Shown: positions 7,601 to 22,171 of the stretch, piece by piece | Position numbering within the stretch: position 1 is the first letter of the stretch | How the letters are laid out: every line of letters starts with the position of its first letter | Virus record (IMG/VR): IMGVR_UViG_3300013005_005109 | Coordinates: 1-23,318 of that record | Direction: 5' to 3' (one strand) | Source: a virus | Length of the DNA stretch: 23,318 nt | The notes under the pieces: model-generated | The model's database searches: none | What the model was told of the DNA's origin: nothing | Seen by the model: only the letters and a program-made list of their open reading frames with translations | Made by a program: the position numbers and the translations under genes

Positions 7601-10600
7601 TTATGAGGGCCTTGCATATCCGGCTGAGCGTAGAGCACGCGTTTGCGCCTCTGCTACCTTCTTGGCTAGTTTATCAATATCTCCGGCGTTAGAGACGCTT
7701 GGGTTGTTGATTACTACAGATGCGTTGACGGTCTGGCCGCCGCCCACGGCGGTGACGCCCTCTGGCCCACGCATCTTGTGGTTTGGGATAATGCTGCCGC
7801 CAAGGCCGCCTGGAACCAGAAGCTCTGGGCCGCGCTCTCCGACCATATACCCTACGTTAGGCCGAACGGCACCACCAAAGGCACGCCCACCAATCTTCCG
7901 AAGTGGCTCACCAGAGAATGGAACATTTGATGGTCCGTCAAATGGGAACGGGGCATTTGGGCCAACGTTGTACACCGCTCCACCACCGGCCTGGATCATT
8001 TGGGTTCCCTGCTTTGCGGATTCTGGGTTGATGAAGCTAGTGTAAATCCAGTCGCCAAGCATTCCGCCAAGGATGCTGCCGATCATGCCGCCAATAAATG
8101 GGATTGGAATCAAATTGCCAAGGAGGCCGCCAACCAGCGAGCCGACGGTTCCGGCCACTGCTCGCCCCATATCGCCGCCGGTAGCCCCCGTCGTCAGAAG
8201 CCCTGCAATCATGGCTGCCGGTCCGCCAATCTTTGGAAGGATGCTAAGGAGGTTAAACCCTAGAGATGGAATGAGTTGACCGAAATTCTCAAAGTTACCA
8301 CTAATGGCCATCATGGCAACATCTGCAAGGAATCCTGAGAGGAAGTTACCCTTTTTGGTACCGACAAAACTATCTGCCCTTGCGGCCGTACCCTTAAACC
8401 CGCCCTGGTCTGTGGTGTAAGTCTTCATCCCCGGAAGGTTTAGCTTGCCGCCAGTAAATGGTACGGCAACTTTTCGATATTTAGAGCCGTATAGCTCCGG
8501 CATAAGCCCCGCCCTAACAGCCCCAGGGTCCCTAATGCTCCTAAAGTCAAAGGCTCGAGCCACTTCTCGCGGATATTGAGATCGGGCAGCAGCAACGGGC
8601 CTCACTGAGGCCGGAAGAGTTCCCTCTGCTATTTGAGCCTGCACACGTTCGTAATCAAGGTCAAGCAGTTGGCCGGCAGATTGAAGCTTGCCGAACGCCG
8701 CCTGTGTGAAAGGATCAGCAGTACCCCTGTTGGAAAGCGGGTCAGGAAGTGATTCCTGGGTATGCCCCGCGAAAATGTCAGCAAAATGTTCCATTGGGTC
8801 TGCGCCTGAATAAATTGTTGGTAGCGGGAAGTTTCGCGGCATTGTATATTCCGGGCCGGTGGGGTTCGTAGGGATTCTGCCAAGTGGTTTGCTGTTCGCA
8901 GCATTGGTGGCAATTTCCTTAGCCCGGATAGGGTCAAAGCCTTGGGCAATTAGGCTTTTCTCATAGGCTGCAGTCAAATCTTTCATTTGCATTCTTTCTT
9001 GGAGGTCAGCAATATGCCCTCTAAGATCGCCCTTCGTCTTAATTATTCCAATGGTTTCTTTTAAATTTGATGGCTTGAAGGCTTCTAGGTACATCTTCGG
9101 CACGGTGTAGCGATTATTAGTAATAAGGTGTCCAACCTCGTGAATCATTGCATCCGGCAGTTCGGTTAGTGGCGTGCGCGTATCAACTTGAATATTATTT
9201 GTGTCAAAACGAGCAACTCTTGCAGCAAAGCCCGAATCGGGCCCTCCGTCGACAAGGTCAACAGTTAGTCGCTTGCTCGGATCTGATGGGTCAAACATGC
9301 CTTGCGGCGCAGCGGCAAGGGCCAACCGAATGTTTTCAGAAATTATCTTAAGCTTTTCGGCACTAGTATTTCCTACAAGGGTGTGAGGGATGCGTATATC
9401 CCCCCAATCAAAACTTATAAGGTCCGCAGGCAACCCCTGTATAGGAAAACTATATTTATTACCGTATTTATCTGTTTCGCCAATAATACCCTCAAACCTA
9501 TGCTCGTCGATAACTTGAGAAAGAGATGTCCTATCCCTAAATGCTTGCACACCCGGTATAAGGCTTAGGATTGTGTCCAGCATGCCAGGCCTGAGGTCGC
9601 CCATAACTGTTCGTTGAGCCGGCTTGCCCCTCAGGCCCTCTCCCACCCTCAGGACCCGAGACATCATTCTTTCCTGCAGGTCAGCAGCAGGGTTATATGG
9701 GTCTACTACATCTGAAGATGGGAACTTGCTGAAAAGATCAAGCTGTTCGCCGCCGGACTTTGGAATTACCGGCGCGTCATCTAGTAGCATCTTGAGCGCT
9801 GGGGCGTCTACGGGCCCAAGTTCGGGGAAGAGTTCTGGCTGGGTATAGAGGAGGCGCTCTCGGATCAGTGCAACCTTATCCTCAAACGATCCGCCGCGAG
9901 GAATTGTCCTGGCAACACGAGTTCGCTCCGCCTCGATGTCAATGTTTTTAGCGCGCACTCCCTTAAAGTGCTCGTCGGCAGTGACGGCGTAGAGCGCAGC
10001 TTCGTCAATGTTAGTAAACACCCCTGCTCGAAGGAGAGATGCCGCCTGCGCCGCTCGGCCGGCAAGGATGCGGCCTGTCTCCTGCTGCCGGAGAATCGTT
10101 TCCTTTGCTGCAAGAATTTGCTCGGGGTCAACCGGCATACCGCCAGATGAGGCTCGCCAGTCGGCAATTTGCCTCTCAAGAACGTCAGTTGCGACTGCGT
10201 GATTTCCAAGGTCGGTAAAGCCCATTGCCGCAAGCGCAGCAGCCCGTGCTTTTGCTTCAGCGTCATTAAACGGCCGGTAACCGTTTTTGTCATCGATTAG
10301 AGTTGGCAGACCAAGGATTGTCTCGATTTGATCAATTGGAATGCCGCCAGGGATTTGGAACTCTGCAAGCCTGGTTGCGCCCTTGCCGCTCTGGGGAAGA
10401 GCAGAGGTAAAGCCTATCCTCTTGTTTTCCGGGAATGAGGCTGGGTCGGTTGCAAAGAATGGGAAATGATAGTCGCCGGATAGGAAGTCATTGAATGAGG
10501 TGGTCACATGAGGTGGCTTGTATCCCGGTCGGGTAACAACCGAAGTAATTGGGTCTGCTCCGCCCAAGCTCATGAGGTCAGAGGCATCTCCGCTGAGCAG

Positions 10601-13600
10601 GTTGCCCAAATGGCCGTAGTCGCCGGCAAGGCCGCCAACAATCGAGCTCACCACGCCCGTAGAAAGCGGTCGTGATCCCCTACCCCAAATGCCGCGCTTG
10701 ACAATATCAAGGCCAGGATCAAGCTCGTAGGTATCTCGCAAGCTCATTGGGCGCGAGATGTTAGAAAGCTGGGACAACCCCAGCATATTTCGTGCAAGGG
10801 TTTCAAGTGGTCCCGGAAGCTTTCCTGAGCCGACAAGCCTGGCCAACGCGTCAGCGAGATCCGGCCCAGGCATGATTGACTTCAATCCAGCCCCGTAAAG
10901 AGCGCTCAGGATATCAACAAAGCCGCCAACTCCAGCCAGATTGCTGTTGCTCATTCCCGGAGGAAGAATCTGATGAATAAATCGGGTAGCCGGGTTGGTG
11001 TAGTCCTCAAGCCAGCTCAGCTTGCCGTCGTAGCCACGGCCGACGTCTGTGGCATCAACTGGCCCGCCCTCAGCTCGGCCGCCACCGAAGCGAATCTTTG
11101 GCATTGCGGTTGGGCTTGGCAAATTCAGAAGCTCGCTTCCCGGCGTTAGACTTGGCTTCGGAGCTGGGTTGTTGAATCCGCGATTGTAATTAAACAAGTT
11201 TCCAAAGAAGCCTAGGTCTTTCTTTTGGCCCATATCAATAGACTGCTGTGTTTGCTTTCCATCCCAGACGTTGCCAAAGAGGAGGTCATAGACACTGCCA
11301 GAAATCGCGTCTAGGGCAGTGGCAACCGCCGCATTTGCAGCAAACATTCCTGCGGTTGCCATTCCGCCGCTGGCTACTACTCCTGCAACATTTGGAACGG
11401 CCATGGCAAGTGCGCCAACATTCATGGCAATATTGCGCACCCAGGCACGAGCTGGAGACTCTCCGCGCTCGCTAGCGCCCAAAATGTCAAAGAAGCTCAT
11501 GCCTGTACTGAGGATGGCGGTACCCCTAAACGCCTGGGCCATAACGTTTGCGGCGCTCTTACTTATAGCGTTGCCAGGCTTAAGTTTTATCTTTCCATCA
11601 GGGCCTTCAACCTTTATGCCCGGAACAAAGCCGCTCTTCGGCGACCATGTTTTAATATTTCCAGGACCCTCCCAATTGAATGGGGCAATCTTCCGAACGC
11701 CAATATCGTTCTTAAATCTGTCCCACCAGTTTGGGCGCTTGACTACGGCAAAGGCGTCATCTTCCTCAAACGGAGTCGTTGTGCCCCTGTTATAGCCAGT
11801 GAACTCGCCATTTGGTCCGCCGTAGATTCGACCAATGCCGCCAAGTGGAATGACCGAGTTGATCCACTTTGTATACATCCTAAAATTGAACGGGAACAGC
11901 CCCCATGGATCGTTGGTTGTTGTTGGCGTTGGGCCTGCTGTTGGTGTTGGGGTTGGAGATGGCGTTCCGGTAGGAGTTGGCCTTGGAGTTGGGGTTGGTG
12001 TTGGCTCCCATGACGGCTCTGGCGTTGGGCCCGGGGTTGGGTCCGGGACGAAATCCTGAGGCATGATGCCCTTGCCATACCCAACGTATCCGCCAACCGC
12101 TCGGCCGTATGCGCCGGCACGAAGAGCGCCAGCCGAAGACTTAAGTGTTGATGGGAGTTTATGGTTTGGCGTGACGTATCCGCCGCCCTGCTTGAACATG
12201 GTGAGCATCTCTGGTCCGCGCTCGCCAACCATATAGCTGGTGGCACTGGAGAGGGACCCGCCCATAGCCCTATTCCTGTCTGGGTTATACCCAGCAAGAC
12301 CAGACATAACCATCTGAAGAAGGGTCTGGAACTGCTCCATAAACCCAGTATTCAAATCATCGTATTGGCCGGTTGTGTACTTTCCTCCTGGGGTATAGAC
12401 ATTCTGCATGCGCTGAAGCTGCGCAAGGAATTGGCCAATTTGGTTAAAGCGCTTTACCCGCTCTGGATCGTTTCCGCCAATCTCTGGCTTAACCAGGGCA
12501 TAGTATTCACGGAGCTTTGTCTGAAGGTTCTTAGCATCAGAAATACGTGCCTTAAGCAAGTCCACCATGGTCTGACCCTTGATGGTTCTTGTCTCCGAGT
12601 CTGGGTTCATGATGGCGTTCAGCGCGTCTTGTGCCTTCTTGTACGCAGCAGATTGCGACAAAACGTTTAGGGCGGCAGTAATGGCCTTAGGAAGGGCGGC
12701 AAAGGTCGAGTTAATGTTTGCCTGCAACGCAGCCATGAAGCCAGAGGAGAACGATTCCATGAAGGAGTAGCCCTGGGCAGAAGCGACCTCTAGGTCAAGG
12801 CCAACGTCACCAAAGATGTCCTTAAGCTCGGTAGATGCCTTGGACTTGCTAATCTTGCCTTCTTGGATCTTCTTGAGCAGGTCGTCAATGCGCTCTTGCA
12901 TGACGCGGCTACGCTCTGCCTGATCGAGCTCAAGCGCCCGGGCCTTCTCGTCGTAGAATTGGGTAGTCCCAACGTATGCAGAGCTGGTCTTGCCGGACTG
13001 GATGGCGGCCCCCATTGAGTCAAGACGTGCGCGCTGCTCATCTTGGAACATCTCACGTGCGGCGTCTCGCGCGGCGCGGGCGCGTTCCAGTGGATCAACG
13101 CTAGCATCAAACATGTCAAGGGCGGCCTCTGATGCCCTTGTCCTTGACTCTTCAAGCTGCTGCAGCTTTTCCATCTGCTTTGCCTGGGCTTGCAACGCTT
13201 CGTACTGCTGCTCCAGGACGCCAAGACGGATCATTTCTCCGTCATACAGAACCTCAACGTTTGCAAGTGCTGCAACCTTCTCCTGCTCCAGGGCTTCCTT
13301 TTCGGCCTCAAACAGTGCCTGGATGGCAACCTGTGCTCGGGACATGAGGCGATTAAGCGGGGTCTGGAAGGCTTCCATTGCCTTCTGCATTGCCTCTTGC
13401 GCCTGCTGCAGGAGCTCTCCGGTGGCGTCTAGGGCCTTGGTAAGCAGGCTGATGTACTTTGTTGCCTCGGCATCGCCAGCGCCATACCACTTTGCATAGA
13501 GTTCTTCAACGTATTTCTGATCAAGGTTAAGCGTCTTTGCCACTTCGTCAGGCGAGAACCCCTCTCGAAGCATTTGCTTGATCTTGTCCTGCTGCACTTG

Positions 13601-16600
13601 TTCCAGCTGGCCGATAATGCCAGTTGTGCTCATGGACCACGAAGGATTGTCCCGGAGCCATTGCTGGGCTCGTGATGGATCGCTGTCCGCAACCATTTCT
13701 CTGTTAATTTGCGTGTCGTATCTAGCAGCAGCGCCTTGAGGATCAATGCTTGCGCCCATAAGAGCAAATGTGCGCCTGAGGTACGTTTCAAGGTCATCAA
13801 GGAATCCGCGCTCTTCGGCATAGAGCTCCGGGAACATCTCCTTTGCTTTGTCTTTTCCAACCTGGCCCTCAAGGCGGGTCCTTGTGTCGGTAACAACTTT
13901 TGCCTTTGTGTTAATTGGGTTATTGTTAAATGCCGCTTGCGCTGCTTTTGAAAGCTCCCCAGTAAGGAAAGCCAACGCCATGACCGCACCAGCAATACCA
14001 AAGGTAAGCGCTGCGGTCTGTGCGCTTGTAGCTGCAGTAAGGGCGATGAAAGCGCCGTGCAAGGCCTCTGTTGCCATTCCAACCATCATCATATTGTTAA
14101 AGACAGTAGAAATGCTCTCGTCAAGACCGAGAAGGTTAGAGGCAATGCTGCCGAACATGCCAAACCCGGTCAGTACTCCGCCCAGCATGCCAAGGCGAGA
14201 CCTAACGGCATCAATAATAACGCCGAGCTTAGCGAGCTTCCCGTTTGCTGCGGAAAGTTTGTCTCCAAAACCCTTAACTCTGTTGGTAACGCTTTCTAGC
14301 CCTGCGGCAAGTGCTTGCTCAATTTGGGCTCGCTCGCTGGCACCTACGGTGTCTAGGAAGTCATTGTATCCCTTTGGGTCGTCTATGCTGTATTTCTTTA
14401 GTTCCGCCAATCGTTGAGTTGCGTAATCTACGTCAACGCCAGTATTGAGAACTGAATCTACCCCGCCGGCTGGCGCAATAAATTCTCGACCACCCTTAGA
14501 GGCCCCTAGGGCTTCTATAAATGCAATGGCGCGTACAAGCGCCGGCGATGTGATGGTTTTGCCCGGCGTATTGTCAACGCCGAATCCGGATGCGACTAGG
14601 TTCCCGTCTTGGTCTTGCCTTTGGATAGGAACAAGACGCTGCATGCCATAGCTTTCTACGGCACCAAGGGCCTTGAATGCAAACATGCTGATTTTGAGTT
14701 TTGCCATTTGCTCTGCGGACCTGGCAGCAGCGTTAGCAAACTTTGTCATTGCAAGGGCAAGGCCATCAACCAGAAGTTTTCCGCCGACGAATCCAGCAAA
14801 GAGCACACCAAAGAGCGGAGCAAGAGGCTCAATAACCTTCATTATCCCAGCAAAGGCGGCCAAGATTCCGTCAATGACTGGCATTGCGGTAGAAAGTGCC
14901 GAGGCAATTGTAGCGGCAAGCGTCCCGATTGATGCGGCTGCGGCTGATGAGACTCCTGGGATTACCGAATTGGCGATTGAATCCGCTGAGCTAAGGATGC
15001 CCGGGGCAGCTCGGTCAAAAGCAGAGCGAACGCCATACTGGTTATTTTCATAGGCGTTAGCAAGGAACCCAACAAGGGCCGTGCTGGCTCCAAGAGTTGC
15101 TACAAGCGGGTTGCTACTGATAAATCCAAACAGGGCCCTGGCAACAATAATTGATGCGCCAAGCTTGCGGATAACATCATTAGAGAGGATCTCGGCCATT
15201 GCCTTAAATCCAGAAACCGAGGAGGTAATAAATGCGTTTAGAGGACCCCCGCTGGCCGTTACTGCGCCGCCGATGCCCCCAAGTGTCTTAAGCACGGCAT
15301 CCATAAAGCCGCCGGCGACACTAAGTCCCTCTGGGAGGCCAGATCGGATTGCCTCCGCAACAGTTTTAACTGAACGTGCGAATAGCTGAGATGCCTTTAT
15401 TGCCTCTTCGCCCTGGAGGAATGTTGCAAGGCCGTCGTTAAACTCTTGAGCCTTTGTTCCAGCAAGAAGGTCTCGCATAACCGAGAACAGTGGATTAAAC
15501 GCTGTTGCAACAAGCGACTGAGACGTATCCGCAACAGTCGTCATTGCTCCTTGGAAGGTGCGTGAGAACGCCTTCATACCGCCGCCGTATTTTGCCTCCA
15601 GCCCCTGCAGGATCGCCTGAACTCCGCCAGGCCCAGAGAGGGCGCCGATGCGAGCAAGGCGGCGGATTTCTTCGATGGCGGACTGTGGGTTTAGCAGCTT
15701 CTTGTATGTTGCGCTAGCGGTTTGCCCAGTTCGCTCAAGCTCCGCAAGCAAAGCGTTGGCAAGAATTTCATATCCGGCGATACCAGCGTTTGCCAGCTGC
15801 ATCATGTCGTTTTGATAGACGCGTCCAGCAGAGTTCATTTGTCCGAGTGCGTACGTTACTCGGCGGAGCTTATCGTCTTCGGCACCGAGTGCCGCAACGG
15901 CGTCTCCAATGTTTACAAGCGCCCCACGGAATTCCTTCAGGCCGGTTGTTGAGTACGGGTTGGTAAACGACTCGAGAATCGGCATTTGACCTTGGGCTTT
16001 TGCTTTAACGGAGTCAACCTCGAAGCCGAATGCTTGCATGCGGACGGCTGCAACCTCAAGGTCACCGAACCTGAAGTTTGTGACGTTGGCAAAGTCTTTA
16101 AGGGTTTGAATTGTTGATTCTGTTTCCCGCTGTGCTTCCCTTACGCTGCGTCCTGCATTCTTGAAGAGTGTATTAAATCCAACTCCGGCGGACTCAAGCA
16201 TGGCGTTAAAGCCAATGATGCCGCCCATGAGGTGTTGGATTCCGCCGGCAAAGGCAAAGATTGCCTGCTGGCCAATGGCAAACGAAAGACCAAGCGAAAG
16301 AACGCCGGTTACGGATTGTGTCAATCCGGTATTTGCCTGGGTCAAAACATTTGCTAGCTGACCAAATTGAACGCGACCATCTTGGATGACAAGATTAAGT
16401 CGGCTGTTGGCGGCTCTGGCTGCCTCTGCCGCCTTGGCATTATTTTGGAACTCTGTAACTGCTTGCTGCTTGTTTACTACAGAGGCTTCTGCCTGGGCGC
16501 CGTACTGGACTTGTGCCTCTCGGTATTGCCCAACTGGGCTAAAGCGCTCAAATATACTGCGTCCGTAGGATGATGCAGTCCGCATTCGGGCCGCACGAGC

Positions 16601-19600
16601 CTCGGCTTCTTGGCGAGCCCTCTCAACAAAATCAATAGGTTGGCCGCTGAGCGGCACAAGTGAACCGCCAGGTGGAATGTTGTAGACAGGCTCACCGCCT
16701 GGCAGGCGGAACTGAGGGCCAGATTCATTTGGGTAGGCACCGGCAGGCAAGAAACCGCCACGGCGGGTTATTGGCAGTGGCATGCCAACGAGACTGCCCT
16801 TCTGTACTAGCGCGCCACTTTGGGCAATCTCGGCATTGATCTGTGAAACGGTAGACTGGAGGATGGTCTTTGTAAGCTCATTGAGCTGCTGCTGAACCCC
16901 CGGATCATCTGCGGCCACTCCGGGCTTTTGCCCCTTAATAATCTTTTCAAATGCTTCTGGGTTGATGGCCATGGCAACAGCCTGCTTCTCGGCCTCTGAT
17001 GCGTTGGCCATGAACGCGGCCATCATCTCTGGTGTTCGGTTGGAGATACCGGTTATGCCACGAAGCTCGCTTCCTGGCTTGAGCAGCGAGCCGGTAGCCT
17101 GGATAAACGCACGCTGCAGGGCCTGTTCAAACGGCATGTTAAGGCCCTGGAATTGCTTGGCAGCCCCAGACCGAATGCCGCCCTCTCCGTATGATCGGAT
17201 GGTTTCAGAAAGGATAGAAGCAATCTCAAGGAACGAGGTCTTTGGGAACATCTTGGAAGACTTGCCAAGCTCTCCAATTCCTGCCGAAACTTGGGCAAGC
17301 AGCTCTTGGATTGGAGCCCCGCCACCCTGCACCTTTGCTGCGGTTTCATGAATCTTGGTAGCAAACTCAGTAAAGAGGGTTGAGGCGGAGACAAGCGAGG
17401 GCTTAGTTTTAAATGCTAGCTCCTGAAGATGTGGTGTGAGTTGCGCTGCGGCAATGCCAACGCCAAGCCCGGGGGTATTGAAGCCTTGCGGCCGCGATTG
17501 AGCATATTGGTGAAAGGCAAGATTGGCGAGGAGGCCACCAGTCTTTTTAGAGATCTCTGCCTGGAGTTGGTAGAACATTGGGTCAGCATGGCTAATTCCT
17601 CTGCCGCCTTCAGCGGAAAGAATTCCTTGCAGGCTCTTTTCTCCAAGCTTTTCTCCCTTTGGCCCGTAATGCATCGCTGTGGCTGGCGGCGTATAGCCAC
17701 CCTCCTTCATCCGCTCAAATGCACCGTGCGCAATTTCATGGATTGCAGTACGAAGAATGGCTCCTGAGCCTCGGTTTAGGTTTCCAATCTCCAGGAACCC
17801 GGCAGCTGCACCGGTAGTTGTCTGCCCCTGCAAGCCTTCACTCTCGCCAGGGAGTCCACGGAACGACGCCTTAAAGTGTTGCAAAATCTGAGATGCAAAG
17901 TTCCTTTCTAGGAAAGGCTTAAATGCCTCAGTAATGCCCGGAAGCACGCCCTCAACGGCCTCGGTCATAAACTTTGTATTGGCGGTGCGCGGACCGACAG
18001 AGGCGCTCTTACCAAACATGAGTCGCTCAAAGCGCTGCATTCCTGGGGTCCTGGCAACAGCCTCAGCGGCAGCCTGGGTAGCTGCTTGTGTTGCGGCTTG
18101 GGTAGCGGCCTGGGTAGCTGCTTGTGTGGCTGCCTGTGTTGTGGCAGGAATCAGGCTGGCCGTTGACTGGCCAGATGAGGCGGATGCAATGAGCGCTTGA
18201 TGCGACGCAAGTGGCGGGACCAACAGGCCACGAGTCTCCATGAGGGCACGTGCCTTATTCAGCTCGGCAATCATTCCCTCAACGTGAGCCGAGCCAAAAG
18301 CATGACCGCCCTGCATGCCAACCTTAGCCAACTCATTGGCAAGATTTTTATACCCCTGAGTAAGGTTTTTGTTTAGTTGTTCCTGACGAGCCGGGTCAGA
18401 CTCTTCGTACGGCAGGTATCCACCGGCACGAGCCTTTGCAGAGCCCTTAGCAGTTCCGGTTGCGCGCGGATTAAGGCGATATGAGCGTGCGCTTTCTGGG
18501 CGACGCATCGAAACTGGTTCCTCTGGTTCCTGTGGCTCTGGGGCCGCCGTAGGTGCCTTTGGGGGCTTAGGAGGCTTCTCTCCGCCGCCGCCGCCGCTAG
18601 AAGCTGGGGGCGCTGAGCCAAGATATCCAGGGTCTCGGGCTGCAGAAGCCTGGATTGCGCCCTCAACGGCCTCTTGGATAAGGCGCTCGACGCCCCTAGC
18701 GCCCTTACCCTGCCCAGACTTGAGTCCGGCAAGCATGGTGGCAGCTGCCTCTTGTGCAATCTGCAGTGCAACACGTGGGTCTGCTGTGATTGCGCTTGGG
18801 TCAAGCCCCATGCCGCCTTGGGTTGCAGACATTGCGCGTCCGCCATAGGTAGAAAGGCCGGCAAAGAATGCAGGAAGGCCCCGGCCAGCTGCAAGAATGC
18901 TTGAGGCAAGCTCAACGCCTTGGGCGGACGGCTCTCCAAAGGCAGTTGTTTGCGCGGTAATAAGTTTTCTGGCTTCTGCAAGCTTGCCAGCAACCCTTCC
19001 CATTCTGCTTGCCCCGCCGGCAACCGCCTGGGCAGCATTGATCAGCTCAATTGCTTCTGGGAGCGCATTGTAAATCGGGTCCATTCCGGCTGGAATCTCT
19101 CCAGCGCCAATTCTGCCTCGAAGTTGCAGCTGTGGCCCAACCGCCTTGTGAAGTTCTCTTAGTAGCGGCGCTGGAATGCCGCCGCGCTCGCCTTCCAGAA
19201 TCCTGCCGACCATGCTCTCAGTTGCAGCGTTGTTACCAAATGCCGTAGAGAGCAGCACGCCCTCCATAAGCCTTTGCAGCTTTGGACTAGTTCCTCCCTT
19301 GGCTGTCTGGTACTCAGAACGCACTCGCTCTACGGGAATTTCAGCAAGAACAAGCTGCTTTAGCTCTTCGACGGCAGATCCGCCCTTGCGGATTGTTGGG
19401 CCAACATTTCCGCGCTCAAAGCCGCCAGGAATCCGTGCAATAGTTTTAGAAATCGCTTGCGCAATTTCCGCTTCGGTCATGCCGGTAGAGAAGTTAAGCA
19501 TGGAGCCAAGGCGTGAGCCTTCTCGTGTGCCAATTTTTTCAAGGCTTGCCGTAAGCTCTCGCGTCACCACCGGCGTCCTTCCGGCTTGCACTATTGCTAT

Positions 19601-20698
19601 AGCCTCGTTAATCGCCCTTGTTACGCCCGATGGCCCGCCAAATGCTGCTGGATTTTTTGTAATAAACTCTCGTACTGCTGTAATAATTTGCTCTTTCCCT
19701 GGCTTGGTGGAGGCAAGTTGCTGCATGCCAAGCGTTCGGGCATTTCCGGAAAGAACCAATGCGGCTTTAGATACCTCAGAGCGAACTGTCGCAACAATTC
19801 CCTCTGCAAGGTTAGGGCTACCGTAGAAAATCTTCTGTGGGTCAAATCGGCCGGAGATTTCCTCAATGAGCTGGCGAGAGGCAACGCTTTCAGCTCGGCC
19901 AGCGCCACCACGAGCACGTGGTTGAAGATACTGCGGGTATGCGGGCTGCCTTGAGGTAACAAGCTCCTCAAGCGCCTGGACAACATACCTTGCCTCTATT
20001 TTTCCGCCAGAACTGCGCGGGTCGGCAAAGCTTTCGGCCGGGGCTGGCTTTGGTGTTGCGGCACGCTTAGGTGCCCGGGCAGGCCTATCGCTCTCCACGT
20101 CATCAATTAGGCCAGACCGTCGCAGCTGCGAGCGTATGTTTTCAACGTTTCTGCGGTCACCTCCGGTAGATGGGAAGAAGACCATGCGCTTGGACTTGTC
20201 TGGCGGGTAGGCAACAAAGTGTCCGCCATTGGTCTTTTCAATGCGGAACCCTTGGCGTTCGGCCTTTGCCATCAGGGCTCGTAGGCTTGCCTCTTGGCCA
20301 CGGCGAATCCTGGCGTCTTGAACTATGCCTGAGGAGGATGGGGAGGAGGAGACCCGCCCGGCCTGGCGCTGGACACGCTCCGAAGCTGCGGCTAGTCGGG
20401 ACATTTCCTCCATAGAACGACGAACGGCCCCGCCGACACGGATCGCATTGCGTTCCATGTCGCGCAGAGCCGGTATCGCCGTGCGAGTAATGTCTTTTGC
20501 AAATCCGGCAACGGGGGACTTCGATCCGCTGCCGAGTAGGCCGCCAGACGCAAGGGAGATTTGCTTGTTCGCAGACTGCAAGGCCTTAAGGCCGCTGAGA
20601 AGCCTGTCAATGTCGCGGAGCGTACGGGCTACACCGTCCTGGAATGCGGCAGAGTCAAGCGATATGCCAACCCGTGCTACATTATCAATCTCGGCCAC
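7601..20698 (-). CDS. Giant multidomain tape measure protein (4,365 aa)
   Basis: Tape measure protein, the helical ruler inside the tail tube that is released when DNA is ejected. It begins at GTG (20698), eight bases after a GGGGGG stretch and just after the chaperone stop, with a typical start (VARVGISLDSAAFQDGV). In order: HicA-like fold (about 137-199); helical region; Gly/Pro linker (about 695-727); AATQ repeats (856-875); zincin-like domain with HEIAH (987-991); tape measure core (about 1465-1740); several long hydrophobic stretches (about 1800-2300); coiled coil (about 2417-2573); VGERGPE motif (2824-2830); Pro/Thr linker (about 2885-2929); a second half of about 1,400 residues with a hydrophobic stretch and a second zincin motif HEVGH (3853-3857) plus E3970; Gly-rich hydrophobic region; a second VGERGPE (4286-4292). 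No lysozyme, NlpC/P60 or M23 domain was recognised. It is far longer than most tape measures (about 700-2,000 aa). The stop TAA is 3 nt before the hub gene start. Confidence 0.93.
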   Translation of the reverse strand: MAEIDNVARVGISLDSAAFQDGVARTLRDIDRLLSGLKALQSANKQISLASGGLLGSGSKSPVAGFAKDITRTAIPALRDMERNAIRVGGAVRRSMEEMSRLAAASERVQRQAGRVSSSPSSSGIVQDARIRRGQEASLRALMAKAERQGFRIEKTNGGHFVAYPPDKSKRMVFFPSTGGDRRNVENIRSQLRRSGLIDDVESDRPARAPKRAATPKPAPAESFADPRSSGGKIEARYVVQALEELVTSRQPAYPQYLQPRARGGAGRAESVASRQLIEEISGRFDPQKIFYGSPNLAEGIVATVRSEVSKAALVLSGNARTLGMQQLASTKPGKEQIITAVREFITKNPAAFGGPSGVTRAINEAIAIVQAGRTPVVTRELTASLEKIGTREGSRLGSMLNFSTGMTEAEIAQAISKTIARIPGGFERGNVGPTIRKGGSAVEELKQLVLAEIPVERVRSEYQTAKGGTSPKLQRLMEGVLLSTAFGNNAATESMVGRILEGERGGIPAPLLRELHKAVGPQLQLRGRIGAGEIPAGMDPIYNALPEAIELINAAQAVAGGASRMGRVAGKLAEARKLITAQTTAFGEPSAQGVELASSILAAGRGLPAFFAGLSTYGGRAMSATQGGMGLDPSAITADPRVALQIAQEAAATMLAGLKSGQGKGARGVERLIQEAVEGAIQASAARDPGYLGSAPPASSGGGGGEKPPKPPKAPTAAPEPQEPEEPVSMRRPESARSYRLNPRATGTAKGSAKARAGGYLPYEESDPARQEQLNKNLTQGYKNLANELAKVGMQGGHAFGSAHVEGMIAELNKARALMETRGLLVPPLASHQALIASASSGQSTASLIPATTQAATQAATQAATQAATQAATQAAAEAVARTPGMQRFERLMFGKSASVGPRTANTKFMTEAVEGVLPGITEAFKPFLERNFASQILQHFKASFRGLPGESEGLQGQTTTGAAAGFLEIGNLNRGSGAILRTAIHEIAHGAFERMKEGGYTPPATAMHYGPKGEKLGEKSLQGILSAEGGRGISHADPMFYQLQAEISKKTGGLLANLAFHQYAQSRPQGFNTPGLGVGIAAAQLTPHLQELAFKTKPSLVSASTLFTEFATKIHETAAKVQGGGAPIQELLAQVSAGIGELGKSSKMFPKTSFLEIASILSETIRSYGEGGIRSGAAKQFQGLNMPFEQALQRAFIQATGSLLKPGSELRGITGISNRTPEMMAAFMANASEAEKQAVAMAINPEAFEKIIKGQKPGVAADDPGVQQQLNELTKTILQSTVSQINAEIAQSGALVQKGSLVGMPLPITRRGGFLPAGAYPNESGPQFRLPGGEPVYNIPPGGSLVPLSGQPIDFVERARQEAEARAARMRTASSYGRSIFERFSPVGQYREAQVQYGAQAEASVVNKQQAVTEFQNNAKAAEAARAANSRLNLVIQDGRVQFGQLANVLTQANTGLTQSVTGVLSLGLSFAIGQQAIFAFAGGIQHLMGGIIGFNAMLESAGVGFNTLFKNAGRSVREAQRETESTIQTLKDFANVTNFRFGDLEVAAVRMQAFGFEVDSVKAKAQGQMPILESFTNPYSTTGLKEFRGALVNIGDAVAALGAEDDKLRRVTYALGQMNSAGRVYQNDMMQLANAGIAGYEILANALLAELERTGQTASATYKKLLNPQSAIEEIRRLARIGALSGPGGVQAILQGLEAKYGGGMKAFSRTFQGAMTTVADTSQSLVATAFNPLFSVMRDLLAGTKAQEFNDGLATFLQGEEAIKASQLFARSVKTVAEAIRSGLPEGLSVAGGFMDAVLKTLGGIGGAVTASGGPLNAFITSSVSGFKAMAEILSNDVIRKLGASIIVARALFGFISSNPLVATLGASTALVGFLANAYENNQYGVRSAFDRAAPGILSSADSIANSVIPGVSSAAAASIGTLAATIASALSTAMPVIDGILAAFAGIMKVIEPLAPLFGVLFAGFVGGKLLVDGLALAMTKFANAAARSAEQMAKLKISMFAFKALGAVESYGMQRLVPIQRQDQDGNLVASGFGVDNTPGKTITSPALVRAIAFIEALGASKGGREFIAPAGGVDSVLNTGVDVDYATQRLAELKKYSIDDPKGYNDFLDTVGASERAQIEQALAAGLESVTNRVKGFGDKLSAANGKLAKLGVIIDAVRSRLGMLGGVLTGFGMFGSIASNLLGLDESISTVFNNMMMVGMATEALHGAFIALTAATSAQTAALTFGIAGAVMALAFLTGELSKAAQAAFNNNPINTKAKVVTDTRTRLEGQVGKDKAKEMFPELYAEERGFLDDLETYLRRTFALMGASIDPQGAAARYDTQINREMVADSDPSRAQQWLRDNPSWSMSTTGIIGQLEQVQQDKIKQMLREGFSPDEVAKTLNLDQKYVEELYAKWYGAGDAEATKYISLLTKALDATGELLQQAQEAMQKAMEAFQTPLNRLMSRAQVAIQALFEAEKEALEQEKVAALANVEVLYDGEMIRLGVLEQQYEALQAQAKQMEKLQQLEESRTRASEAALDMFDASVDPLERARAARDAAREMFQDEQRARLDSMGAAIQSGKTSSAYVGTTQFYDEKARALELDQAERSRVMQERIDDLLKKIQEGKISKSKASTELKDIFGDVGLDLEVASAQGYSFMESFSSGFMAALQANINSTFAALPKAITAALNVLSQSAAYKKAQDALNAIMNPDSETRTIKGQTMVDLLKARISDAKNLQTKLREYYALVKPEIGGNDPERVKRFNQIGQFLAQLQRMQNVYTPGGKYTTGQYDDLNTGFMEQFQTLLQMVMSGLAGYNPDRNRAMGGSLSSATSYMVGERGPEMLTMFKQGGGYVTPNHKLPSTLKSSAGALRAGAYGRAVGGYVGYGKGIMPQDFVPDPTPGPTPEPSWEPTPTPTPRPTPTGTPSPTPTPTAGPTPTTTNDPWGLFPFNFRMYTKWINSVIPLGGIGRIYGGPNGEFTGYNRGTTTPFEEDDAFAVVKRPNWWDRFKNDIGVRKIAPFNWEGPGNIKTWSPKSGFVPGIKVEGPDGKIKLKPGNAISKSAANVMAQAFRGTAILSTGMSFFDILGASERGESPARAWVRNIAMNVGALAMAVPNVAGVVASGGMATAGMFAANAAVATALDAISGSVYDLLFGNVWDGKQTQQSIDMGQKKDLGFFGNLFNYNRGFNNPAPKPSLTPGSELLNLPSPTAMPKIRFGGGRAEGGPVDATDVGRGYDGKLSWLEDYTNPATRFIHQILPPGMSNSNLAGVGGFVDILSALYGAGLKSIMPGPDLADALARLVGSGKLPGPLETLARNMLGLSQLSNISRPMSLRDTYELDPGLDIVKRGIWGRGSRPLSTGVVSSIVGGLAGDYGHLGNLLSGDASDLMSLGGADPITSVVTRPGYKPPHVTTSFNDFLSGDYHFPFFATDPASFPENKRIGFTSALPQSGKGATRLAEFQIPGGIPIDQIETILGLPTLIDDKNGYRPFNDAEAKARAAALAAMGFTDLGNHAVATDVLERQIADWRASSGGMPVDPEQILAAKETILRQQETGRILAGRAAQAASLLRAGVFTNIDEAALYAVTADEHFKGVRAKNIDIEAERTRVARTIPRGGSFEDKVALIRERLLYTQPELFPELGPVDAPALKMLLDDAPVIPKSGGEQLDLFSKFPSSDVVDPYNPAADLQERMMSRVLRVGEGLRGKPAQRTVMGDLRPGMLDTILSLIPGVQAFRDRTSLSQVIDEHRFEGIIGETDKYGNKYSFPIQGLPADLISFDWGDIRIPHTLVGNTSAEKLKIISENIRLALAAAPQGMFDPSDPSKRLTVDLVDGGPDSGFAARVARFDTNNIQVDTRTPLTELPDAMIHEVGHLITNNRYTVPKMYLEAFKPSNLKETIGIIKTKGDLRGHIADLQERMQMKDLTAAYEKSLIAQGFDPIRAKEIATNAANSKPLGRIPTNPTGPEYTMPRNFPLPTIYSGADPMEHFADIFAGHTQESLPDPLSNRGTADPFTQAAFGKLQSAGQLLDLDYERVQAQIAEGTLPASVRPVAAARSQYPREVARAFDFRSIRDPGAVRAGLMPELYGSKYRKVAVPFTGGKLNLPGMKTYTTDQGGFKGTAARADSFVGTKKGNFLSGFLADVAMMAISGNFENFGQLIPSLGFNLLSILPKIGGPAAMIAGLLTTGATGGDMGRAVAGTVGSLVGGLLGNLIPIPFIGGMIGSILGGMLGDWIYTSFINPESAKQGTQMIQAGGGAVYNVGPNAPFPFDGPSNVPFSGEPLRKIGGRAFGGAVRPNVGYMVGERGPELLVPGGLGGSIIPNHKMRGPEGVTAVGGGQTVNASVVINNPSVSNAGDIDKLAKKVAEAQTRALRSAGYARPS
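7760..7890 (-). other. C-terminal tape measure signature (VGERGPE), terminal copy
   Basis: Residues about 4270-4313 read FGGAVRPNVGYMVGERGPEL, then LVPGGLGGSIIPNHKM, with VGERGPE at 4286-4292 (7843-7823). A short segment typical of tape measure C-termini follows (VNASVVINNPSVSNAGDIDKLAKKVAEAQTRAL). It is preceded by a Gly-rich hydrophobic stretch (VGGLLGNLIPIPFIGGMIGS) that could enter a membrane during ejection. Confidence 0.85.
8770..9290 (-). other. Second zincin-type metallopeptidase domain in the tape measure protein
   Basis: A beta-rich lead-in (RLTVDLVDG..., ARVARFDTNNIQVDTRT) is followed by LPDAMIHEVGHLI with HEVGH at residues 3853-3857 (9142-9128). At 113 residues downstream lies GADPMEHFADIFAGH, with E3970 (8791-8789). 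The 'dp.E.FAd.FA' helix is the usual place of the third zinc ligand (glutamate) in gluzincin-type peptidases. Both halves of the signature are therefore present, which makes this copy better supported than the first. Substrate unknown. Confidence 0.72.
11912..12046 (-). repeat. Pro/Thr-rich low-complexity linker in the tape measure
   Basis: Residues about 2885-2929 are almost entirely P, T, G, S and E in a PTP repeat (for example EPTPTPTPRPTPTGTPSPTP). It is encoded by GTTGG/GGTGTT-rich DNA on the plus strand. It separates the classical tape measure part, which ends with the first VGERGPE motif, from the additional C-terminal half. An extended, flexible inter-domain linker is the likely role. 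Confidence 0.88.
12140..12265 (-). other. Internal copy of the tape measure C-terminal signature (VGERGPE)
   Basis: Residues about 2812-2853 read AMGGSLSSATSYMVGERGPE, then GGGYVTPNHKLPS, with VGERGPE at 2824-2830 (12229-12209). This 'GG......Y.VGErGPE....GG.v.PN' signature normally occurs once, near the end of tape measure proteins. Here 1,500 further residues follow it, and the same signature appears again at the true C-terminus. Confidence 0.85.
12980..13450 (-). other. Long coiled-coil segment of the tape measure
   Basis: Residues about 2417-2573 are rich in A, E, Q, K and R with few prolines or glycines and regular hydrophobic spacing (LLQQAQEAMQKAMEAF..., ALFEAEKEALEQEKVAAL, LEQQYEALQAQAKQMEKLQQ, ARAARDAAREMFQDEQRARL). 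This is the rod-like, helical part expected to span the tube lumen. Confidence 0.75.
15480..16300 (-). other. Canonical tape measure core domain
   Basis: Residues about 1465-1740 contain the recognisable conserved part of phage tape measures. A hydrophobic segment (IFAFAGGIQHLMGGIIGFNAM) is followed by LESAGVGFNTLF, TLKDFANVTNFRFGDLEVAAVRM, the region with GDAVAALG, LRRVTYALGQMNSAGRVYQNDM, and MQLANAGIAGYEILANAL. The run 'AlgQm...Grv...dm.qLanaGi.gyeiLa' is characteristic of the family (TIGR02675-like). It lies 1,400 residues into the protein, although this domain is normally near the N-terminus. Confidence 0.85.
17430..18040 (-). other. First zincin-type metallopeptidase-like domain in the tape measure protein
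   Basis: The motif ILRTAIHEIAHGAFERM contains HEIAH at residues 987-991 (17740-17726) within a hydrophobic helix, the classic HExxH zinc-binding signature. About 46 residues later, GISHADPMFYQLQAEI offers H1037 or D1039 as possible third ligands, resembling the 'HGp.F' helix of several zincins. The flanks (about residues 887-1090) are mixed helix and strand, unlike the helical tape measure around them. The third ligand and activity are uncertain. Confidence 0.62.
18074..18133 (-). repeat. Five 12-bp tandem repeats encoding (AATQ)5
   Basis: Five consecutive units of A-A-T-Q (residues 856-875) are encoded by imperfect 12-bp repeats. A degenerate unit ATTQ precedes them and AAAE follows. Codons vary between units (GCA/GCT/GCC, ACA/ACC, CAA/CAG). 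The repeat sits just before the first zincin-like domain and likely forms an alanine-rich helical or flexible linker. Confidence 0.9.
20105..20290 (-). other. HicA-like domain within the tape measure protein
   Basis: Residues about 137-199 read as helix, then QGFRIEKTNGGHFVAY, then a basic loop and a strand (PPDKSKRMVFFPST), then DRRNVENIRSQLRRSGL. This matches the HicA/YcfA alpha-beta-beta-beta-alpha double-stranded-RNA-binding-like fold: 'Gf....ggH..y', a 'p' strand and a final helix ending in 'l...gl'. The histidine of the GGH motif is H160, the position of the catalytic histidine in HicA mRNA interferases. The match is by pattern; similar stand-alone or fused domains occur in phage proteins of unknown role. 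Confidence 0.6.
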
Positions 20699-20713: not shown

Positions 20714-21270
20714 CTAGGCCCCCGGCTTTCCGAAGACCGAAATCATTTGCTCCAGAGACCCAACTGTTTTCATCCCTGAAGAACCATCGGCGAATTTCGC
20801 CTTATTTTTACCGGAGGTGTTTTTGGTTTCGCCCTTCATCGCTTCATCACGCTTCTCAACATACTTTGCGTATGCATTGAGTTGTGGAAGCGTAAGTTGC
20901 ATGAACTCGGCTGGGGTATAACCAAAGGCATCTGCATAAGAAGCCATGATCGACCCCCAGTCGATCTCCCCCCAGCTTACGCCTCCGGAGCTTTTCCCTC
21001 GGAAACGCCACCCTCATCGTTGCCGATGAGACCGCTTGAGCGAAGCACCTTGTCGATTTCGTCACGCATTGTATCGAGCGAGAACTTGTCACCTACCGCG
21101 CGCTCATCCATCTTGTTGTCATCCTTGCGAAGGACAAGCCAAAGGATATAACGAAGTACAGTGAACTTGGTAAGGTCGACCTTGTCAAGGCCTCCAAACT
21201 TATCCTCAATGTCCGCGAGGTCGTTGAGGGTGAGTACGCGCGTTGGGCGTACTTGATTAAGGGTTGCCAT
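20714..21270 (-). CDS. Tail assembly chaperone, long (GT-type) product by -1 frameshift
   Basis: Predicted fusion made by slipping back one base at GGGAAAA (20998-20992). It is translated from 21270 to 20992, then from 20992 again to the TAG at 20716-20714, giving 93 + 92 = 185 residues. Directly after the slip the frame reads SSGGVSWGEIDWGSIMASYADAFGYTPAEF and then LTLPQLNAYAKYVEKRDE. This 'WG.I......G.tp.e...LtlpqL.ay' pattern is typical of the T portion of chaperones in lambda-like siphophages. The downstream part also exists as a 77-codon ORF starting at ATG 20947, but that ATG has no well-spaced Shine-Dalgarno and begins in the middle of the conserved segment. Independent translation is therefore less likely. 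The T part is thought to recruit tube subunits to the tape measure. Confidence 0.85.
20948..20966 (-). other. Perfect 7-bp stem-loop downstream of the slippery site
   Basis: The minus strand reads GATCGAC-TGGGG-GTCGATC, a perfect inverted repeat with a 5-nt loop. It begins 25 nt after the slippery heptamer and ends one base before the internal ATG at 20947. That spacing is longer than the usual 5-9 nt for a frameshift stimulator. It may instead, or additionally, block initiation at the internal ATG so that the T segment is made only by frameshifting. The function is inferred. Confidence 0.5.
20977..21270 (-). CDS. Tail assembly chaperone, short (G-type) product
   Basis: A 97-residue acidic, mostly helical protein (TLNDLADIEDKFGG..., LRYILWLVLRKDD, then a polar tail). 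It sits between the tube genes and the tape measure gene, where siphophages encode the G/GT tail assembly chaperones that coat the tape measure before tube polymerisation. The ATG at 21270 has a good Shine-Dalgarno AGGAG (21282-21278) 7 nt upstream. Five codons before its TAA stop lies the in-frame slippery sequence G GGA AAA, which gives a longer product (see the frameshift entry). Size, position and frameshift agree with the family although sequence similarity among chaperones is low. Confidence 0.85.
   Translation of the reverse strand: MATLNQVRPTRVLTLNDLADIEDKFGGLDKVDLTKFTVLRYILWLVLRKDDNKMDERAVGDKFSLDTMRDEIDKVLRSSGLIGNDEGGVSEGKAPEA
20992..20998 (-). promoter_or_regulatory. Programmed -1 ribosomal frameshift slippery site GGGAAAA
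   Basis: The minus strand reads GAG GGA AAA GCT in the zero frame, so the heptamer is G GGA AAA, a perfect X XXY YYZ match, close to the lambda GGGAAAG site. Slippage changes the reading to GGG AAA AGC TCC and enters the open frame of the T-type segment, avoiding the TAA at 20979-20977. It is located at codons 92-93 of the 97-codon chaperone ORF, the expected place. Confidence 0.88.
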
Positions 21271-21316: not shown

Positions 21317-22171
21317 TTAAGCCGTGATTGTCACGATTTGCGCCGTGCTGGAATCATACTGAAGGTTGAACTCAAGGTCAACCTTGATGATGTCCTCTCG
21401 TGTAAACGGAATGTTGTGCTGATAGATACAAACCTTATGGCCGGTGATCTCCACCGACTTGGATGGATCATCTGAGCGGATGTGCGTGAACACTGCACGA
21501 ACCGGTCGGTTGCGGAGCATCGACAAGTCAAGTGGGTTGACAGCCGCTGTACCAAAGTTAAGGTTTTCGCGGAAGTTCAACGTGCCTGGGTAGATGCTTG
21601 TCGAGCCATTATGGGTCAGCGTAGTGCTGAAGAGGCGCGAGAAGCGCATTGGGTCAAGCTCAAGTCCGCTGACGCGGATGGTTGACTTGCCACCAAAGTG
21701 TGCCTTAGCAATAGGGAAGTTAAACTGACCAAAGAATTCACGCTCTTGGAAGGAGATGTCAAACTCAACGTCGCCACCAATTTCGCCAATGTCCTGCATG
21801 CCTTGGTACTGAGCAAGGGCTGCGCTAGCTGGGTCAACAATGGCCGTAATGCTGGCCGTTGTTGAGGCGGTGTTGGTGTGAAGCCATTCGTAGTTGTAAA
21901 CGGTTCCAACATACACGTCGTACGTTGTGGCGCCGGAAAGCGCGGTCCAGGAAACATCAAGCTTCCCGGTTGCGCTAAGGATTGCCGTCAGCGGGGCCGA
22001 CGGAGTTGCCGTACCGGCAGCGTTCCGCCCAGCGACACGTACATAGTACGTGCCGGCTGGGACGGAGCCGCTAGCAGTTGAGGGGGTTACGGCGACGCCC
22101 GCAACCTGAGTATAAAGACCACCGGAAATCCAAGTACCGATTTGGAGCCGGCCGCTACCAAGTGTAAACAT
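21317..22171 (-). CDS. Second tail tube protein with inserted Ig/Fn3-like domain (paralog 2)
   Basis: A 284-residue paralog of the preceding tube protein. The shared block GGDVEFDISFQEREFFGQ begins at residue 132 here and at residue 47 in paralog 1, so about 85 extra residues lie between the common N-terminus (MFTLGSG...W14) and the common core. The extra segment (about residues 25-112) has an Fn3/Ig-like pattern: PAGTYYVRVAGRNAAGT, then LDVSWTALSGATTYDVYVGT, then a final TASITAI strand. Ig-like domains on tube proteins commonly face outward and are thought to help weak binding to cell surfaces. A Shine-Dalgarno AGGGGG (22185-22180) sits 8 nt before the ATG. The protein could be a minor decorating tube subunit or a co-polymer with paralog 1; the sequence cannot decide. 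Confidence 0.76.
   Translation of the reverse strand: MFTLGSGRLQIGTWISGGLYTQVAGVAVTPSTASGSVPAGTYYVRVAGRNAAGTATPSAPLTAILSATGKLDVSWTALSGATTYDVYVGTVYNYEWLHTNTASTTASITAIVDPASAALAQYQGMQDIGEIGGDVEFDISFQEREFFGQFNFPIAKAHFGGKSTIRVSGLELDPMRFSRLFSTTLTHNGSTSIYPGTLNFRENLNFGTAAVNPLDLSMLRNRPVRAVFTHIRSDDPSKSVEITGHKVCIYQHNIPFTREDIIKVDLEFNLQYDSSTAQIVTITA

What the first reader, a model, noticed from the sequence alone, without database searches (positions are those of the whole stretch)
7601..20698. Tape measure protein as a polyvalent effector carrier (candidate undescribed system)
One polypeptide combines a HicA-like fold, two zincin-type domains, low-complexity linkers and the tape measure ruler. Polyvalent proteins of phages and conjugative elements are known to string together peptidase and other effector domains and to be delivered with DNA. 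Here the carrier would be the structural ruler itself, which all infecting particles contain in a few copies. This links tail length, delivery and host takeover in one gene.
Basis: inference. Interest (0 to 1): 0.85.

Follow-up and report, generated by a model that had tools for sequence, protein, structure and literature searches.

The report
Giant phage tape measure carrying cargo
A virus of bacteria has a gigantic tail-length ruler protein into which nuclease-like, toxin-like and metal-enzyme domains of a kind other phages inject into cells have been spliced and swapped like cassettes, so the ruler may also carry takeover enzymes into the host.

Summary
ORF 7601-20698(-) is a 4,365-aa siphovirus tape measure protein (TMP): tail-gene synteny in 54-59 of 77 related loci, core similar to annotated TMPs. 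It carries a HicA-like domain, two HExxH domains and low-complexity linkers. The C-terminal HExxH domain looks like a true gluzincin; the N-terminal one is not confirmed as a peptidase.

Across 77 related TMPs (41 complete clusters), HExxH domains occur in all 13 proteins of 4,000 aa or more and in none of 17 under 3,000 aa. They are never in the ruler core. Cargo is exchanged independently of the core: two TMPs with 99% identical cores carry zincins only 48% identical, with near-saturated silent sites.

'Polyvalent cargo on the ruler' is therefore well supported as anatomy; delivery and enzyme activity are untested. The principle is not undescribed: Thermus phage P23-45 has a TMP-fused virion RNA polymerase (PMC10770324), and TMP-like effectors of contractile systems exist (PMC13277306). 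What appears new is a family of TMPs with combinatorial polyvalent cargo: a new variant of a known kind.

The parts
7601..20698 (-). Giant tape measure protein gene, 4,365 aa, GTG start
   Evidence: TMP
20354..20698 (-). N-terminal domain (aa 1-115), shared by the window's clade; the N-terminal cargo follows it
20099..20314 (-). HicA-like domain (aa ~129-200), conserved His in all 10 TMP copies aligned
18785..20023 (-). DdrB-like ParB module (ParB aa ~229-332 plus companion region to aa ~638); signature QPRxR...SGNxR intact
18075..18145 (-). Low-complexity TQAATQAAT linker (aa ~851-874)
17108..17980 (-). HExxH domain A (aa ~907-1197), HEIAH at aa 987 (17726-17740); downstream [GSE][HE].DP.F motif; enzyme class not confirmed
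14729..16381 (-). TMP core (aa 1440-1990), present in all relatives; no HExxH here in any of 77 TMPs
13568..14731 (-). Variable central block (aa ~1990-2377), exchanged between relatives
12299..13651 (-). Conserved segment (aa ~2350-2800) present in 43 of 77 TMPs, coiled-coil-like by inspection
12134..12274 (-). First copy of the C-terminal motif YMVGERGPE...PNHK (aa ~2809-2855)
11922..12004 (-). Pro/Thr-rich linker, tandem repeat
8669..9481 (-). Zincin domain B (aa 3740-4010), HEVGH at aa 3853 (9128-9142), conserved downstream Glu (E.FAD)
8399..9751 (-). Most divergent exchanged block (aa ~3650-4100); aa 3200-3650 is also diverged
8054..8341 (-). Gly-zipper-like hydrophobic segment (aa ~4120-4215)
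7769..7888 (-). Second copy of the YMVGERGPE...PNHK motif (aa ~4271-4310), near the protein's C-terminus
20977..21270 (-). Tail assembly chaperone (first frame)
20714..20947 (-). Tail assembly chaperone second frame, probably reached by -1 frameshift at GGGAAAA 20992-20998
21317..22171 (-). Major-tail-protein-like gene 2 (position and synteny)
22195..22857 (-). Major-tail-protein-like gene 1 (position and synteny)
22871..23269 (-). Tail terminator/completion-like gene (position and synteny)
2225..7597 (-). Tail-hub-like protein, 1,790 aa, directly downstream
3..2225 (-). Tail-tip or fibre-like protein, 741+ aa, runs off the contig

Best explanation
The gene encodes a siphovirus tape measure that doubles as a carrier of polyvalent cargo. 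SHOWN BY SEQUENCE: a ruler scaffold (N-terminal ~115 aa, core aa 1440-1990, segment 2350-2855, C-terminal GERGPE/PNHK end) with two variable cargo regions. The N-cargo holds a HicA-like domain, a DdrB-like ParB module and HExxH domain A. The C-cargo holds linkers and zincin B and is followed by a Gly-zipper-like hydrophobic segment; the C-cargo plus this segment lie between two copies of the C-terminal motif. Cargo is absent from short relatives and exchanged between close relatives. INFERRED: a few TMP copies fill each tail tube. On infection the TMP is ejected C-end first, the hydrophobic segments insert in the membrane, and cargo becomes exposed on the inner side as DNA passes. The ParB module (DNase/NTPase-like) and HicA-like domain then act on nucleic acids, protecting or nicking phage DNA or attacking host RNA/DNA. 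Zincin B cuts a host target, or first frees the cargo; its cassette-like exchange favours a host- or defence-directed target. HExxH domain A, which always accompanies ParB (10 of 10), may process the protein, as is proposed for the peptidase of P1 DdrB.
For: TMP identity and synteny. ParB: above Pfam cut-off in relatives, same family as in classical polyvalent proteins, invariant signature, profile match to P1 DdrB E=3.5e-5 with no shuffled decoy matching. P1 Dar proteins, DdrB among them, are ejected with DNA. HExxH motifs: 40 in N-parts, 0 in cores, 14 in C-parts of 77 TMPs; all 13 complete clusters of 4,000 aa or more have them, 0 of 17 under 3,000 aa. Metal-ligand motifs conserved at 15-50% identity. 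Zincin B model pLDDT 71.5, fold neighbours almost all zincin peptidases. Cassette exchange: silent-site difference 0.08 in core and 0.09 at the C-end against 0.69 in zincin B; same pattern for zincins in L007/L006 and L020/L037. Another clade's N-cargo has a PI3/4-kinase-like domain above cut-off. TMP reaches the inner membrane and contacts the defence protein SNIPE during infection (PMC13190303). Functional precedent: P23-45 TMP-fused RNA polymerase.
Against: No protein data: neither incorporation of full-length protein, ejection, nor catalysis is shown. Folded domains are hard to fit in a tail lumen of about 4 nm (own knowledge), so cargo may be cleaved off before or during assembly. HExxH domain A has no recognisable peptidase fold. 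Fold matches for zincin B are consistent in kind but weak (E 0.06 or worse). HicA never passes Pfam's cut-off. ParB in the window itself is below cut-off (21.9 against 27.6 bits). Domain families say nothing about the target.
Confidence: 0.55

Rival explanations
1. Assembly-time processing: the HExxH domains are self-cleaving maturation proteases that trim the giant TMP, and the N- and C-cargo are chaperone-like or scaffold pieces removed before the virion is finished. Nothing is delivered.
For: P1 DdrB is processed before packaging, and self-processing by metallopeptidases is the main role proposed for polyvalent proteins (PMC5512222). Long low-complexity linkers would be natural cut sites. 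HExxH domain A always co-occurs with ParB (10 of 10) and is not an exchange hotspot in W/L008.
Against: Short relatives with the same tail genes need no such domain. Zincin B is swapped between TMPs with 99% identical cores, odd for a self-processing enzyme whose substrate stays the same. Pure self-processing gives no reason to keep ParB, HicA or kinase motifs intact.
Confidence: 0.2
2. Envelope breaching: the metallopeptidase cargo digests cell-wall or surface-layer proteins or peptidoglycan cross-links at the injection site, as TMP-borne muralytic domains do.
For: TMP-borne peptidoglycan hydrolases are known; P23-45 gp96 carries an M23 peptidase. One relative's C-part matches a PHROG labelled endolysin. 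The C-cargo would sit at the tail tip (own knowledge).
Against: Zincin B is an HExxH/Glu gluzincin type, not M23 or M15, and no peptidoglycan-hydrolase family was found in the window protein. It does not explain the nucleic-acid-directed ParB and HicA domains.
Confidence: 0.15
3. Inert spacers: the domains are catalytically dead remnants recruited to lengthen the tail or fill the tube.
For: Cargo adds thousands of residues, and TMP length is expected to scale with tail length (own knowledge).
Against: HExxH, downstream metal-ligand-like residues, the ParB QPRxR/SGNxR signature and kinase TDRHxxN...DN motifs are kept at low overall identity.
Confidence: 0.07

Closest known systems
Thermus phage P23-45 gp96 (5,002-aa TMP with N-terminal virion RNA polymerase; PMC10770324)
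   Same: Giant siphoviral TMP with an enzymatic N-terminal cargo that works early in infection; metallopeptidase elsewhere in the protein; cargo absent from some related phages
   Different: Cargo is an RNA polymerase and an M23 peptidase. gp96 has no HExxH, no recognisable ParB or HicA, and no convincing sequence similarity to this TMP family. None of the 77 TMPs has the D.DGD RNAP motif
Phage P1 DdrB and other polyvalent proteins (PMC5512222)
   Same: DdrB-like ParB module together with an HExxH domain in one large polypeptide; other disparate domains in the family
   Different: DdrB is a 995-aa internal head protein with no ruler. Classical ddrB-ParB occurs in 37 of 50,697 phage records and none of the places is annotated as a tape measure. 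'Tape' does not occur in the text of PMC5512222
Sle1/Tme TMP-like effectors of actinobacterial contractile injection systems (PMC13277306)
   Same: TMP-related coiled-coil carrier with exchangeable functional domains, packaged in a tail-like tube
   Different: Bacterial contractile systems, small proteins, C-terminal effector only, not a phage ruler
TMP-borne cell-wall hydrolases (e.g. mycobacteriophage TM4, phage T5 pb2; own knowledge)
   Same: Enzymatic domain carried by the TMP and used at entry
   Different: Cargo targets peptidoglycan; no polyvalent-type domains
HicA toxins / phage 'HicA-like toxin' genes
   Same: ~70-aa domain with the conserved His and similar motif layout
   Different: Embedded in a TMP, and no HicB antitoxin found in 14 contigs with one HicB model

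Membership tests
Siphovirus tape measure protein | Homology of the core to annotated TMPs | tested here: met
Siphovirus tape measure protein | Place in the tail module between frameshifted chaperone and tail hub | tested here: met
   (54-59 of 77 loci); slippery GGGAAAA 20992-20998
Siphovirus tape measure protein | Length sets tail length | not testable with these tools
   needs microscopy of virions
Polyvalent proteins (Iyer et al. 2017) | Several unrelated enzymatic or nucleic-acid domains in one polypeptide | tested here: met
   HicA-like, ParB and HExxH domains, with some assignments remote
Polyvalent proteins (Iyer et al. 2017) | A polyvalent-specific domain such as DdrB-like ParB (PF18763) | tested here: met
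   Window copy 21.9 bits, below the 27.6 cut-off; relative L007 34.7 bits and five members matched; invariant signature and P1 DdrB match
Polyvalent proteins (Iyer et al. 2017) | Zincin-like metallopeptidase of a polyvalent clade | tested here: inconclusive
   Zincin B zincin-like but only weak matches to any clade; domain A unconfirmed
Polyvalent proteins (Iyer et al. 2017) | Injected into the host with DNA | not testable with these tools
   no protein-level data
P23-45 gp96-type TMP-fused virion RNAP | RNAP D.DGD motif in the N-terminal cargo | tested here: not met
   no match in 77 TMPs
P23-45 gp96-type TMP-fused virion RNAP | M23 peptidase domain | tested here: not met
   present in gp96, not found in the window protein
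HicA toxin-antitoxin system | HicA domain above curated cut-off | tested here: not met
   best 15.9 bits for a TMP copy against a cut-off of 27
HicA toxin-antitoxin system | HicB antitoxin partner | tested here: not met
   none in 14 related contigs with PF15919; other HicB models not tried and contigs may be partial
Zincin metallopeptidase (domain B) | HExxH helix, downstream Glu ligand, zincin fold | tested here: met
   motif; downstream Glu in most rows; model; neighbours almost all zincins, but E 0.06 or worse
Zincin metallopeptidase (domain A) | Zincin fold around HExxH | tested here: inconclusive
   low-confidence model; top two hits HExxH oxygenase-type structures at E~0.24
TMP-like CIS effector (Sle1/Tme) | Encoded beside a contractile sheath and DUF4157 partner | not tested
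   no sheath or DUF4157 gene among the window's few genes; no dedicated search

The most novel reading that the evidence does not exclude
A lineage of siphoviruses uses the tape measure as a polymorphic effector carrier: a constant ruler core with combinatorial, recombining N- and C-terminal cassettes (DdrB-ParB, HicA-like, several unrelated HExxH types, PI3/4-kinase-like) delivered into the host as an arms-race arsenal, comparable to polymorphic toxins.
Probability: 0.45. Interest if true: 0.8.

Novelty: new variant of a known kind. Interest (0 to 1): 0.62.

Why it matters
If true, a structural part present in every infecting siphovirus particle would also be an injected, exchangeable effector platform. 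That would extend the single demonstrated TMP-fused RNA polymerase to a whole family of cargos, give a testable answer to what tape measures far longer than 3,000 aa are for, and provide a catalogue of candidate counter-defence or takeover enzymes. The cassette swap in otherwise near-identical phages points directly to the domain to test first (zincin B).

Tried and rejected
No near DNA match in 50,697 phage records. tblastn of the L007 ParB region, zincin B, HExxH domain A and the L020 kinase-like region against phages found nothing. PDB sequence searches with HicA, HExxH-A and ParB profiles gave only chance-level hits. The zincin B profile gave lethal-factor-like zincins, best E=0.006, taken only as a fold hint. 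Literature searches for TMP plus HicA plus metalloprotease found nothing. Rejected: vRNAP-type cargo (no D.DGD motif); a HicA toxin-antitoxin pair (no HicB found); chance HExxH; assembly artefact (same architecture in independent contigs). Considered and lowered: domain A as a proven peptidase. A TerL search of ten related contigs was negative and says nothing about the finding. No RNA families or tRNAs in the window.

Full report
WHAT IS THERE. The window is an IMG/VR virus record of 23,318 bases. All major genes are on the minus strand: a tail terminator-like gene, two major-tail-protein-like genes, a tail assembly chaperone in two frames, the giant ORF 7601-20698 (4,365 aa, GTG start), a 1,790-aa tail-hub-like protein and a tail-tip protein that runs off the contig. 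Homologues of the terminator, tail-protein and chaperone genes lie upstream, and of the hub gene downstream, of the giant ORF's homologue in 54-59 of 77 related loci, same strand and order.

IT IS A TAPE MEASURE. PF20155 TMP_3 matches aa 1588-1731 (E=1.3e-8; 35.2 bits, under the cut-off of 41), and PHROG TMP families match aa 1586-2602 and 1593-2000 (E~1e-9 and 1e-8). The core (aa 1440-1990) matches annotated tape measures of cultured Arthrobacter and Bacillus phages. 78 related IMG/VR loci were collected, of which 76 gave relatives plus the window, 77 TMPs in all; complete ones are 1,536-5,594 aa long.

CARGO IN THE N-PART (aa ~125-1300). (i) HicA-like domain, aa ~129-200: phrog_2089 E=1.5e-9, mycobacteriophage proteins annotated HicA-like toxin at 37% identity, E=1e-4, plasmid proteins annotated HicA family toxin for two other TMP copies, conserved His in all ten aligned copies. 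Pfam HicA is the best Pfam family but stays below cut-off, so this is a remote assignment. A scan of IMG/VR with the ParB profile returned 68 loci: 13 from TMPs of this family and 55 others. The ORFs behind 49 of those others are 621-4,318 aa long, many with HExxH; the four examined carry PF18763 at E<=4e-27, three of them with LPD1, LPD38 or ART-PolyVal. Twelve positions, including QPRxR and SGNxR, are invariant between TMP copies and classical copies, and the TMP profile matches P1 DdrB at E=3.5e-5 with no shuffled decoy matching. Homology often extends through the companion region to profile position ~330-360, so a two-part module travels together. (iii) HExxH domain A (HEIAH, aa 987), conserved in relatives, with a downstream [GSE][HE].DP.F motif. 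It occurs in all ten TMPs that have ParB, echoing P1 DdrB, which has HELGH at aa 872. Its model is weak (pLDDT 64.9) and its two best fold hits are HExxH-containing oxygenase-type structures at E~0.24: a peptidase is not established.

CARGO IN THE C-PART (aa ~2860-4110). A Pro/Thr linker (11922-12004) leads to a variable stretch and zincin B (HEVGH aa 3853). W26, G27, the HExxH residues and a downstream Glu are invariant or nearly so in relatives 15-50% identical. The model (pLDDT 71.5, pTM 0.72) has the HExxH residues in a long helix and the downstream Glu in a later helix. Nearly all of the top 50 PDB neighbours are zincin peptidases, though with E 0.06-1.5; viral neighbours include SprT-like, M34, IrrE-like and PolyVal metallopeptidase proteins. 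Next comes a Gly-zipper-like hydrophobic segment (aa ~4120-4215), conserved in the members that carry zincin B. The C-cargo and this segment lie between two copies of the motif YMVGERGPE...PNHK (aa 2825 and 4287); short relatives have at most one copy, at the end.

NOT CHANCE. Shuffling gives about 0.01 HExxH per protein. The 77 TMPs hold 40 in the N-part, none in the core and 14 in the C-part. Among 41 complete clusters, 13 of 13 TMPs of 4,000 aa or more have HExxH, 7 of 11 at 3,000-4,000 and 0 of 17 below 3,000. The HExxH domains fall into several groups that do not detect each other at E<=1e-3. One clade's N-cargo also has a PI3/4-kinase-like motif (TDRHGSN...DNEH, 34.3 bits, cut-off 27.1).

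CARGO MOVES INDEPENDENTLY OF THE RULER. On a core tree the fewest changes are ParB 1, N-terminal HExxH 2, HicA 3, zincin B 4 (quick tree with some long branches). The window and L003/L008 share 99% of core residues, and the DNA is 97.8% identical over 8.6 kb from aa ~4035 onward, but aa ~3656-4035 is not found by blastn. Four-fold-site differences are 0.08 in the core, 0.09 at the C-end, 0.50 at aa 3200-3560 and 0.69 in zincin B. A zincin is also the identity minimum in L007/L006 (zincin B) and in L020/L037 and, among the N-terminal blocks, L020/L023. L008 and L002 instead share N-cargo and zincin B while differing between them. Exchange of an enzyme on an almost unchanged ruler is what a host- or defence-directed effector would show. 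It is not proof: exchange also affects the central block aa ~1990-2377.

MECHANISM. Shown: the anatomy, motif conservation and exchange. Inferred: carriage in the tail, ejection and activity. Independent literature makes delivery plausible. The lambda TMP is the phage protein robustly labelled by an inner-membrane ManZ fusion during injection, and the membrane nuclease SNIPE contacts siphovirus TMPs (PMC13190303). Gly-zippers occur in TMP C-terminal regions and are needed for translocation of a T6SS effector (PMC10240207). P1 Dar proteins, DdrB among them, are ejected with DNA (PMC12810830). P23-45 gp96 is a 5,002-aa TMP with a working virion RNA polymerase at its N-end (PMC10770324). The best reading is a polyvalent tape measure (0.55); rivals are assembly-time self-processing (0.20), envelope breaching (0.15) and inert spacers (0.07).

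NOVELTY. The principle that a TMP can carry an enzyme used in the host is published, so 'undescribed system' is too strong. The combination with the polyvalent repertoire was not found in the searches made: the polyvalent-protein paper's text contains no 'tape', classical ddrB-ParB occurs in 37 of 50,697 phage records with no place annotated as a tape measure, and gp96 itself lacks HExxH. This is a new variant of a known kind.

LIMITS. Host and habitat are unknown; relatives were found through this protein and some contigs repeat each other or are fragments; structure matches are weak; no protein-level evidence exists here.

Noticed in passing
window 20992-20998 (-), with ORFs 20977-21270 and 20714-20947: Canonical -1 slippery site GGGAAAA near the end of the first tail-chaperone ORF; the -1 frame runs into the second ORF, as in lambda gpG/gpGT. 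The motif alone is at chance frequency, so support is positional.
   Followed up: partly
window 21317-22171 and 22195-22857 (-): Two adjacent major-tail-protein-like genes; most relatives outside the window's clade have a single place that both queries hit. Only the larger one has an Ig/fn3-like stretch.
   Followed up: no
TMP aa ~1990-2377 (window 13568-14731): A second exchanged block in the middle of the ruler: window and L008 share one type, L002 and L004 another, at 32-50% identity inside much better conserved flanks. Could be a host-membrane-interaction region.
   Followed up: partly
L020 TMP aa 640-760 (also L037, L021, L023, L072, L074): PI3/4-kinase-like catalytic motif TDRHGSN...DNEH inside the N-cargo of a tape measure, above the Pfam cut-off; no match in the phage collection.
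   Followed up: partly
TMP aa 2825 and 4287, and relatives: The C-terminal TMP motif GERGPE...PNHK is duplicated in most cargo-bearing TMPs with a C-cargo and flanks it, as if cargo was inserted beside or through a duplication of the C-terminal end.
   Followed up: partly
C-parts of relatives in alignment A4: One member's C-part matches a PHROG labelled endolysin (phrog_12490, E=2.3e-9), so some relatives may carry cell-wall hydrolase cargo; the member was not identified.
   Followed up: no
L090 (Anaerolinea MAG) and L091 (Dethiobacter MAG): The only two bacterial MAG contigs with a distant relative of the TMP core (954 and 1,029 aa ORFs, no HExxH); weak hints to host range only.
   Followed up: no
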